The notes beneath the pieces are model-generated. The model had not been told where the DNA came from. It ran no database searches and saw only the letters and a program-made list of their open reading frames with translations. Shown piece after piece: positions 24,596 to 41,278 of a DNA stretch of 64,000 nt (within the stretch, counting starts at the first letter, position 1; every line of letters begins with the position of its first letter). The stretch lies in assembly GCF_900106845.1 (NCBI RefSeq), contig NZ_LT629850.1:33433-97432 (forward strand). Direction: 5' to 3'. This stretch comes from Romboutsia timonensis. GTDB lineage: Bacteria > Bacillota > Clostridia > Peptostreptococcales > Peptostreptococcaceae. A program made the translations under genes and the position numbers.

Positions 24596-24639
24596 TAATG
24601 TAATAATTAAAAAAATAGCAATGAAAAGGAAGAGTAAAA

Positions 24640-24861
24640 TAGAAACAATTAAACAGAGAGGATAAGTCATAGGCTGGAAACTTATCTTAATATGACTATT
24701 TGAAAACTACCTTGGAGCTGAACTTATTAGCATTTATAAAATGTGAAAGTGTTCGGGTGACAACCTTATAGTCATCAAGAGGAAGTATTTAAATACTTCA
24801 ACTTGGGTGGAACCGCGAATTAATACTCGTCCCAATATATTTATTTGGGACGAGTTTTTTT
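24640..24861 (+). ncRNA. T-box leader of thrS (threonine specifier ACU)
   Basis: The leader carries the T-box motif GGGTGGAACCGCG (24805-24817) and a terminator with an 11-bp perfect stem (24825-24835 with 24845-24855) plus T run. Upstream Stem I features include AGAGAGGATAAG and GGCTGGAAA. The likely specifier is ACU at 24706-24708, five bases before GGAG, as in the pheS leader. Uncharged tRNA-Thr should stabilise the antiterminator and allow thrS transcription. The 5' boundary is approximate. Confidence 0.9.
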
Positions 24862-32952: not shown

Positions 32953-32984
32953 TATATAAAAAAATATATTTTAAAATACAATGA

Positions 32985-33222
32985 AAGAGAAAAGTATTTT
33001 GAATTAACTTAACACAGAGAAAAGTATCAAGGCTGAAAGTACTTTATAAGAATTCAAAAGAAGTTCCCTCTGGAGTATTAAAGCTGAAATTAATAGTAGG
33101 CTTTAACGTTAAAACGCGTTAAGTTTATTTGAGGTGGTTTAAAATTTGTAATTTTAGACTACTAGGGTGGTACCGCGAAATAATAGTCTTTCGTCCCTAG
33201 GTTGGGATGAAGGGCTTTTTTT
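32985..33222 (+). ncRNA. T-box leader of pheST (phenylalanine specifier UUC)
   Basis: It carries the T-box motif GGGTGGTACCGCG (33165-33177), a 13-bp terminator stem with G-U pairs (33185-33197 with 33204-33216) and a T run. The specifier UUC at 33064-33066 stands five bases before GGAG, the same geometry as ACU in the thrS leader. Uncharged tRNA-Phe should permit read-through. The 5' boundary is approximate. Confidence 0.9.
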
Positions 33223-39820: not shown

Positions 39821-39903
39821 TAAATCATATTCTAGTGCTATAATATGTAAAATTGACTATATTAAGCAAATATGATAATATTACAAAATAATAAAAGTTA
39901 AAT

Positions 39904-39935
39904 AATGCTCTGGGTATAAAATTATCCAGAGCATT
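39904..39935 (+). terminator. Hairpin after the U32 gene
   Basis: A 10-bp perfect stem (39904-39913 with 39926-39935), extendable by 3 pairs including G-U. Only AATAATTT follows, so it is a weak terminator candidate. Confidence 0.5.
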
Positions 39936-39973
39936 AATAATTTAAAAATGAAGAAATTTAAAAAATGACATTT

Positions 39974-40090
39974 TGAAATGTTTCGCCCACGCAGTGGCTC
40001 AAGCAACGGATGTGACCGAAATGCTTCGCCAACACGTTGATCAAAGTGGTAGCGAGTGTCATATCGTTGGCGATATGAGCATAGCGAATT
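39974..40090 (+). repeat. G+C-rich patch with tandem ~43-bp repeat and hairpin
   Basis: About half of these bases are G or C, against a surrounding region near 30%. Two imperfect copies begin GAAATGTTTCGCC (39974) and GAAATGCTTCGCC (40017), offset 43 bp. A perfect 7-bp hairpin CATATCG/CGATATG follows (40060-40077), then a T run at 40088-40093. It lies in the 315-bp gap between the U32 and XRE genes. It may be a small RNA gene, an intergenic repeat element or foreign DNA. Confidence 0.5.
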
Positions 40091-40135
40091 TTTTATTAAA
40101 ATAAATTCTATAAACAATGAAAGAGAGACTTAAAT

Positions 40136-41278
40136 ATGAGCAAAAAAGCATTTATAGGAAGAAAATTAAGAGAAGCTAGAATGTATAGAGGTAAAACAAT
40201 AGATGTATTAGCTAAAGAAACTAATATAAATAAAAAAGATATAATTGCATTTGAAGAAGATAAATATAAACCAACATTAGAAAATGAAATGAAGCTATCA
40301 AATGCACTAGGATTTCCAAGAGAATTCTTTAAATATGCAGACAATATAAAAATGACTATAGATTCTACACATATAAGACCAGAATGTACAATACCAAAAG
40401 TAGAGCAAATAGCTTTTAAAGAAAAATTAGCTATGACTCATAGGATATTAACATTTTTAGAAGGGTATATCCAATTCCCACAAATGAATATACCAACTGA
40501 TTTAAATAAAAATGAAGATATAGAAGAGTTAGCAACTAAGGTAAGAAGATACTGGAATTTAGGGGATGGCATTATAGGTAACATGCTAACCTTACTTGAG
40601 ATAAATGGAATAATAGTATCTGATGCTAATATAAACAAAAAAGGAGCCTTATCATTTAGTCAAAAACAAACTGTAAATGGAAATAGTAGATACTTTGTAT
40701 CTTTAGGTAATGATAAAAAATCAGCATGTACAAGAAACTATGATTTAGCATATGAATTAGCATATATAGTAGCAACAGAAGCAAACATACAATCAAAAAA
40801 ATTCTCTAAGGATGAATTTGCTTGTGCATTTTTAATGCCTAAAGAAACTTTTATACAAGATTTAAAAATGGTAAATGACTTAGAAGATTATGTTGAATTA
40901 AAGAAAAAGTGGATAGTTCCAATATCAGCTATAATATTAAGAGCATATCAATTAGGTGAAATAAGTTACAAAAAATATATGTACTTAATGAATGAAATGG
41001 ATAAAAAGGGATGGTTAAAGAAAGAACCACTAGAAGAAAATATAAAAGCTACAAGTCCGATGCTATTAAAAAAATCTATAGATGTATTAATAGATAATAA
41101 TATAATGAGTAAGGCTAGTTTAGTAATGAATTTATCAAATTGGGGATTACACTTAAATCAAGATGAAGTAGAAGTATTATTAGGATTTAAAGAAGGAAAG
41201 TTAACTACAGAAAGAAATACTATAAATAACAAAAAATCAAAGGTTACAAAAGTTAACTTTAAATCTAAAAAAAGATAA
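40136..41278 (+). CDS. XRE regulator with degenerate ImmA/IrrE domain
   Basis: 380 residues. Residues ~5-65 form a Cro/CI helix-turn-helix (GRKLREARMYRGKTIDVLAKETNINKKDIIAFEE). Residues ~130-260 align with the ImmA/IrrE (M78) metalloprotease fold, but the HExxH zinc motif is replaced by YELAY (206-210), while the later FACAFLMP segment survives. The ~120-residue C-terminus is helical and basic. It is therefore probably a non-proteolytic DNA-binding regulator or sensor. GAAAGAGAG precedes the ATG. It is followed by a small lipoprotein gene 31 bp downstream. Confidence 0.8.
   Translation: MSKKAFIGRKLREARMYRGKTIDVLAKETNINKKDIIAFEEDKYKPTLENEMKLSNALGFPREFFKYADNIKMTIDSTHIRPECTIPKVEQIAFKEKLAMTHRILTFLEGYIQFPQMNIPTDLNKNEDIEELATKVRRYWNLGDGIIGNMLTLLEINGIIVSDANINKKGALSFSQKQTVNGNSRYFVSLGNDKKSACTRNYDLAYELAYIVATEANIQSKKFSKDEFACAFLMPKETFIQDLKMVNDLEDYVELKKKWIVPISAIILRAYQLGEISYKKYMYLMNEMDKKGWLKKEPLEENIKATSPMLLKKSIDVLIDNNIMSKASLVMNLSNWGLHLNQDEVEVLLGFKEGKLTTERNTINNKKSKVTKVNFKSKKR

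What the first reader, a model, noticed from the sequence alone, without database searches (positions are those of the whole stretch)
39974..40090. G+C-rich tandem repeat patch in A/T-rich DNA
About half of the bases are G/C, against a surrounding composition near one third or less. Two 43-bp-offset copies plus a hairpin and T run suggest a structured RNA gene, a dispersed intergenic repeat or imported DNA. It lies directly before an XRE regulator.
Basis: seen in the sequence. Interest (0 to 1): 0.5.

Follow-up and report, generated by a model that had tools for sequence, protein, structure and literature searches.

The report
Hairpin repeat inserted after transcription terminators
The G+C-rich patch is one copy of a small mobile-looking DNA repeat, present in about a hundred or more copies in this Romboutsia-type bacterium and in many relatives, that tends to sit just behind transcription stop signals, can carry further tiny hairpin inserts, and is itself a landing site of a larger jumping element.

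Summary
In detail: 48.7% G+C in a 28.8% window, with two short modules offset by 43 bp. The patch is a partial copy (about 39960-40094) of a dispersed repeat: the own genome has 132 right-end matches against 3 for a reversed-pattern control, and 26 of 99 genomes match, all in the window's own family, apparently Peptostreptococcaceae. Full copies are an A/T-rich hairpin half plus a G+C-rich hairpin unit whose stem covaries. Many sit right behind intrinsic terminators (56 of 81 versus 24 of 400 control T-runs), and occupied/empty site pairs show insertion there. The "43-bp copies" are two of three kinds of optional 25-26 bp hairpin micro-inserts. A sister genome has the same insertion with another module set; two congeners lack it. 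All six IS110-type elements of the own genome have the repeat's left end directly upstream. What moves the repeat is unknown: the own genome has no Y1 transposase or reverse transcriptase hit. Closest analogues are BOX and bcr1 repeats. Function is unproven; the window copy lies in the likely leader of an XRE/M78 gene.

The parts
39960..40094 (+). the repeat copy as a whole (right part of the family's full element; the A/T-rich left half is missing)
   Evidence: family comparison; absent from the orthologous spacer of two congeners
39960..39976 (+). remnant of the junction between left half and right unit (AAAAAATGACATTTTGA)
   Evidence: the same string ends the left half in full copies
39977..40002 (+). 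micro-insert at site 1 (26 nt, hairpin core CAC/GTG)
   Evidence: optional in other copies: in 23 of 42 own-genome copies examined
40003..40016 (+). 5' arm of the right unit's stem (GCAACGGATGTGAC, one bulged G)
   Evidence: stem with covariation in the 64-nt units
   Evidence: in 8 of 42 own-genome copies examined; absent in L004 and L005
40058..40071 (+). 3' arm of the right unit's stem (GTCATATCGTTGGC, one bulged G)
40079..40094 (+). conserved right end GCATAGCGAA plus six T (a vacant micro-insert site 3 lies before 40079)
   Evidence: 132 right-end matches in the own genome vs 3 control; site 3 is filled in the G001 copy
39903..39936 (+). hairpin AATGCTCTGGGTAT..ATCCAGAGCATT upstream of the repeat: conserved in the XRE gene's upstream region, not part of the repeat
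   Evidence: arms; visible in 15 of 22 printed upstream regions of XRE homologues, window's own included
39853..39881 (+). promoter-like site (TTGACT-17-TAATAT); if used, the repeat lies in the XRE 5' leader
   Evidence: 4 such sites in the region against a mean of 3.8 in shuffles, so weak
40136..41278 (+). HTH_19 + Peptidase_M78 (ImmA/IrrE-like) regulator gene downstream

Best explanation
The patch is a 5'-truncated copy of a small non-autonomous mobile repeat of Peptostreptococcaceae. SHOWN: many dispersed copies; a two-part anatomy (A/T-rich left hairpin half, G+C-rich right hairpin unit, right end GCGAAGCGAA-T6); frequent adjacency to the T-run of intrinsic terminators; occupied/empty site pairs between related genomes; optional 25-26 bp hairpin micro-inserts at three fixed sites; a conserved stem with compensatory changes. 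INFERRED: copies spread because an enzyme acting in trans recognises the folded hairpins and joins the element to T-runs behind hairpins; micro-inserts are minimal hairpins of the same family that entered the larger one; the window copy lost its left half by a later deletion between A-rich stretches. Its effect on the XRE/M78 gene, if any, would be as structured sequence in the mRNA leader.
For: Copies: 70 blastn pieces in the own genome, 132 right ends vs 3 control. Spread: 26 of 99 genomes incl. own, 26 of 60 in the family, 0 of 39 outside it; named Romboutsia, Terrisporobacter, Paraclostridium, Faecalimicrobium, Asaccharospora and other records (family of the first three). Insertion: XRE spacer occupied in G000 and G001, empty in G002 and G003, and a separate right-unit insertion in G009 and G029; clean occupied/empty pairs L005/L135, L187/L069, L178/L151, L105 against L102-L104. 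Target: hairpin of -6 kcal/mol or better directly before the T-run in 56 of 81 full copies vs 24 of 400 other T-runs. Stem: 9 of 16 pairs changed on both sides, score 0.377 vs 0.163 in shuffles, 0 of 500 as high (relatedness is not removed by that control). Micro-inserts: site 1 in 23, site 2 in 8, site 3 in 17, a nested one in 3, none in 13 of 42 own-genome copies examined; the sister-genome copy has insert 3 and lacks 43 bp. Recent spread: nine distinct left halves of one subfamily are 93-99% identical, median 96%.
Against: No autonomous version was found, but the search was limited: among 161 right ends in the held loci six lack the usual left stem arm, and only about 110 nt beside them were looked at, not the genes around. 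No tested transposase tracks the repeat: among 19 repeat-bearing genomes searched, Y1_Tnp is absent from 10, own genome included, RVT_1 from 16, PF13751 from 12, PF01548 from 14; other families were not searched. A target duplication cannot be proved because both ends lie in T-runs. 25 of 81 full copies have no strong short hairpin before the T-run by my test. The G003 site opposite the window insertion holds a small hairpin before the same T-run, so this insertion was not a simple addition; two further candidate pairs, L141/L213 and L159/L160, do not align as clean occupied/empty sites.
Confidence: 0.85

Rival explanations
1. The repeat is a cis-acting RNA element (mRNA leader or trailer structure) kept by selection for a regulatory or stabilising role at its many sites.
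For: Stem covariation and conserved apical letters across genera; G-T 22 vs A-C 9 among stem cells leans to the + strand, though 9 of the 22 come from one pair; copies behind SAM-riboswitch and T-box leaders and inside three T-box leaders; L039 and L041, orthologous places, both keep a copy.
Against: Presence/absence between close relatives, near-identical scattered copies, both orientations of the next gene (46 same, 17 opposite, 2 not seen, of 65 full copies). Covariation would also follow from a need of the single DNA strand to fold for movement.
Confidence: 0.2
2. REP/RAYT-type repeat moved by an IS200/IS605 (Y1) transposase acting on single-stranded hairpins.
For: Hairpins with bulged bases, right unit without long terminal inverted repeats, attachment to a short T-rich target, Y1 enzymes in 38 of 61 genomes searched, four hits in G001.
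Against: No Y1_Tnp hit in the own genome (99.98% complete), G002 or G003; none of the 30 Y1 loci fetched, a part of the matches, carries repeat ends nearby. The GTAG or CGTC end tags of REPs were not tested; both letter groups occur inside copies.
Confidence: 0.2
3. Retroelement-like spread similar to group IIC introns, which (recalled) also choose terminators.
For: Fixed orientation behind terminator hairpins.
Against: No RVT_1 hit in the four genomes of the genus that were searched; no group II intron match in Rfam scans of the window or of selected loci with copies.
Confidence: 0.05
4. Classical MITE of a DDE insertion sequence: the left half carries an inverted repeat (TTTTTTACGCTTAA / TTGAGCGTAAAAAA in one subfamily).
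For: Ends of the left half match each other and differ together between several subfamilies; the own genome has 21 PF13751 hits.
Against: Only 28 of 60 measured left halves share three or more consecutive letters beyond TTTA, and 22 more had no such A-rich second end; G001 has 134 right ends and no PF13751 or PF01548 hit; right units occur at sites without the left half.
Confidence: 0.2

Closest known systems
BOX elements of Streptococcus pneumoniae and relatives (boxA-boxB-boxC; PMC3049150, passages read)
   Same: Modular, hairpin-forming small interspersed repeat; optional internal modules that vary between strains; repeats inserted into one another
   Different: No sequence comparison was made; here the optional modules sit at three fixed sites and copies follow terminators
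bcr1 repeats of the Bacillus cereus group (PMC6542083, passages read; the original paper is not held)
   Same: Size class, copy number (up to 130 integral copies of bcr1), mobile features, a T-rich junction motif (TTTAT)
   Different: Different taxon; sequences were not compared; here the T-rich junction is often the tail of a terminator
REP / RAYT repeats (PMC3733652 passages; PMC1525189 abstract)
   Same: Short hairpin repeats, some of which are targets of insertion sequences
   Different: No Y1 transposase hit in the own genome; end tags not tested
Group IIC introns (recalled)
   Same: Attachment downstream of intrinsic terminators
   Different: No ribozyme match and no reverse transcriptase hit in the four genus genomes searched
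IS621 and other IS110 elements and their REP targets (PMC11208160 passages)
   Same: An IS110-type element uses a dispersed repeat as its target
   Different: Here the repeat is this family and the junction is AAGG/AAATTAT in its left half; a bridge RNA was not demonstrated

Membership tests
interspersed mobile-like intergenic repeat (BOX/bcr1 kind) | many dispersed copies in one genome | tested here: met
   132 right ends vs 3 control
interspersed mobile-like intergenic repeat (BOX/bcr1 kind) | presence/absence at orthologous sites | tested here: met
interspersed mobile-like intergenic repeat (BOX/bcr1 kind) | conserved foldable structure | tested here: met
BOX elements | BOX sequence family | not tested
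   no BOX sequence was compared
bcr1 | bcr1 sequence and TTTAT junction repeats | not tested
   bcr1 sequence not at hand; many right ends read T6AT, which contains TTTAT, but a duplication is not resolvable in T-runs
REP/RAYT | Y1 transposase in the host genome | tested here: not met
   0 hits in G000
REP/RAYT | GTAG or CGTC tag at one end | not tested
   definition from PMC3733652 passages; ends were not scored for it
MITE with terminal inverted repeats | inverted repeats at both ends of the full element | tested here: inconclusive
   left half has them in a group of subfamilies; the full element's right end differs
MITE with terminal inverted repeats | target site duplication | tested here: inconclusive
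   T-run on both sides in occupied/empty pairs
group IIC intron | ribozyme and reverse transcriptase | tested here: not met
Rfam structured RNA | match to a described family | tested here: not met
small RNA gene | independent transcription | not testable with these tools
   no RNA-seq here

The most novel reading that the evidence does not exclude
A family-wide, terminator-homing small element that spreads without any known transposase type, grows by accepting its own minimal hairpins at three fixed sites, and in turn serves as the programmed landing site of an IS110-type (bridge-RNA) element, so that terminators become stacked insertion sites for successive parasites.
Probability: 0.35. Interest if true: 0.75.

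Novelty: new variant of a known kind. Interest (0 to 1): 0.5.

Why it matters
Small interspersed repeats are known in several bacterial groups, but which machinery moves many of them is open. This family has a sharp target preference (behind intrinsic terminators), clean empty sites between close species, a sister genome with a different module set at the same site, and RNA-seq deposited for R. ilealis, so target choice, module gain and transcript effects can be tested directly. Its use as a target by an IS110-type element adds a natural case of target choice on a repeat other than REP.

Tried and rejected
Plasmid and phage origin: no match in the two collections. Known RNA: none at threshold; the permissive scans gave only weak, unrelated matches. 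Exact 28-mer of the window copy in the named genome collection: none, so a broader pattern of the right end was used. Y1, reverse transcriptase, IS1182-like and IS110 enzymes as mover: none tracks the repeat; other families were not searched. Autonomous version: six of 161 right ends lack the usual left stem arm; the printed 110 nt show truncated or diverged units, gene surroundings were not examined; none of the 30 fetched Y1 loci has the repeat's ends. DnaA-box idea: TGTGGATAA is exact in 27, one mismatch in 30, two in 16 and missing in 9 of 82 left halves, but it partly coincides with a stem, so no claim is made. The IS110 left end shares the 10-mer TACAAGGAAA with one target variant (as long a match in 2 of 200 shuffles of its first 250 nt, 16 of 200 of the whole IS), but only a T-run with another variant (155 of 200): a lead only. 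A second G016 match of the IS end (L239) was not resolved. The leader alignment had wrong coordinates for L103, L105 and L107 and is not used. Literature: ten searches listed no paper that I recognised as describing this repeat; the last looked for three of its sequence strings and found 0 papers. Only the held open-licence library was searched, mostly seen as listings.

Full report
OBSERVATION. The patch is real: 48.7% G+C over 117 nt against 28.8% for the window, unmatched by any 117-nt stretch sampled at steps of 13. The 43-bp-offset copies match 17 of 22 nt at best, reached by 0 of 500 shuffles, but only 18 of 43 over the full length. There is a hairpin and a T-run but no classical terminator, and the + strand fold is unremarkable (z -1.25; - strand z -2.48).

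DISPERSED REPEAT. The patch with flanks gives 70 blastn pieces in the own genome (40 of 150 first-look candidates were scored). The 16-nt right end, with up to two mismatches, occurs 132 times there against 3 for the same pattern read backwards; G001 has 134 against 3. With the longer query, 26 of 99 genomes match, own included: 26 of 60 in the same family and 0 of 39 in other families of the order. The first three genera belong to Peptostreptococcaceae. G001's main contig is 2,581,778 bp, the length of the R. ilealis CRIB chromosome in PMC5598433 (passages), so the window's genus is taken to be Romboutsia; that is an inference. The passages of that paper found with 'repeat', 'palindromic' and 'mobile' describe no such repeat.

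ANATOMY. From: a T-run, usually a terminator's, then an A/T-rich left half (AYGYNYAAGG..., usually with a TGTGGATAA-like string), then TTTTGA and a G+C-rich right unit GCAACGG...CGTTGGCGACATGAGCGAAGCGAA-T6. On 31 distinct 64-nt right units, 16 stem pairs (14 plus 2 at the tip) with a bulged G on each arm form standard pairs in 93.5% of cells; 9 pairs and 62 cells changed on both sides, covariation score 0.377 against 0.163 in shuffles (0 of 500) and at most 0.092 when slid. Shuffling does not remove relatedness. These 31 are all distinct units of exactly 64 nt among 137 copies; other lengths were not put to this test. The left half's two ends form an inverted repeat in a group of subfamilies.

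MICRO-INSERTS. Three fixed sites in the right part may hold 25-26 nt hairpins. Of 42 distinct own-genome copies that I held (of about 130), site 1 is filled in 23, site 2 in 8, site 3 in 17, a nested fourth in 3, and 13 have none (the first count gave 24 and 12 because one neighbouring copy was read in). In 52 of 53 distinct occurrences the variable stem letter keeps its partner (CAC/GTG 25, GAC/GTC 16, AAC/GTT 11, one mismatch); these reflect a few insert types, not 52 events. Read in reverse they look like minimal versions of the right unit's own stem; this is my reading of the letters.

INSERTION. Upstream of the XRE/M78 gene the repeat is present in G000 and G001 and absent in G002 and G003. 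The G001 copy differs by having insert 3 and lacking 43 bp between the two TTCGCC strings. In G009 and G029 a separate right unit sits behind TTTT in the same spacer, which is empty in G010, G030, G034 and G014. Further clean pairs: L005/L135, L187/L069, L105 against L102, L103 and L104, and L178/L151, where the insertion follows the terminator of a SAM riboswitch. L141/L213 and L159/L160 did not align as clean pairs. The G003 site opposite the window copy has a small hairpin before the same T-run, so this history includes a loss, probably of that hairpin and the left half (inference).

TARGET. Of 137 copies, 82 have a left end by a match that allows six errors in 22 letters, so a few may be false; 81 could be scored (one too short), and 56 have a hairpin of -6 kcal/mol or better directly before the T-run against 24 of 400 random T-runs of the same loci. 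Among the 25 misses two follow 5S rRNA (L154, L196) and some have, by eye, longer hairpins. By a simple ORF finder, among 65 full copies with enough flank the upstream gene points towards the repeat in 55; the downstream gene is co-directional in 46 and convergent in 17. Three right units lie inside T-box leaders (L049, L160, L200).

WHAT MOVES IT. Not known. Among the 19 repeat-bearing genomes that were also searched for enzymes, Y1_Tnp is absent from 10 (own genome included), RVT_1 from 16, PF13751 from 12, PF01548 from 14. G001, with as many copies as the own genome, has neither PF13751 nor PF01548 but has four Y1 hits. Nine distinct left halves of one subfamily are 93-99% identical at different sites, so spread was fairly recent.

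A TARGET ITSELF. All six PF01548 (IS110-type) places in the own genome have the repeat's left end directly upstream ([T-run] ...AAGG|AAAAACATTAAAC); two of the six have the same upstream sequence and look like one insertion duplicated in the assembly, next to a run of N. In the three with a readable downstream end the rest of the repeat follows (...CATTTTCGTA|GGAAATTAT or GGAATTAT). The same kind of end joined to the repeat is seen in two genomes of another genus (L058, L234). REPs are known IS targets (PMC1525189 abstract; PMC11208160 passages).

JUDGEMENT. A small modular mobile-like repeat of the BOX/bcr1 kind, with a sharp target preference, optional hairpin modules and an IS110-type guest. 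Function in the window is unproven: the copy may lie in the XRE/M78 leader, because a promoter-like site (weak) and a hairpin seen in 15 of 22 printed upstream regions of homologues lie before it; the gene product has HTH_19 and Peptidase_M78 domains.

Noticed in passing
L221-L225 (own genome), L058, L234: IS110-type elements sit in the left half of this repeat (AAGG/AAATTAT): six of six upstream junctions in the own genome (one perhaps an assembly duplicate), three readable downstream ones, and two junctions in another genus.
   Followed up: yes
window 39903-39936: Hairpin AATGCTCTGGGTAT..ATCCAGAGCATT upstream of the XRE/M78 gene is visible in 15 of 22 printed upstream regions of homologues across genera: possible conserved mRNA leader of this regulator.
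   Followed up: partly
L049, L160, L200: Right units of the repeat lie inside T-box leaders that still score above the Rfam threshold.
   Followed up: partly
left halves of 82 copies: DnaA-box-like string TGTGGATAA in the left half: exact in 27, one mismatch in 30, two in 16, none in 9.
   Followed up: partly
L154, L196: Full copies close behind 5S rRNA genes.
   Followed up: no
G000, 21 PF13751 hits: Own genome carries 21 hits to PF13751 (IS1182-type by recall), absent from G001 and G003.
   Followed up: no
window 24612-24837 and 32972-33201: Two T-box leaders.
   Followed up: no
L225: Two IS110-type places with identical upstream sequence, one next to a run of N in a repetitive gene: probable assembly artefact.
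   Followed up: no
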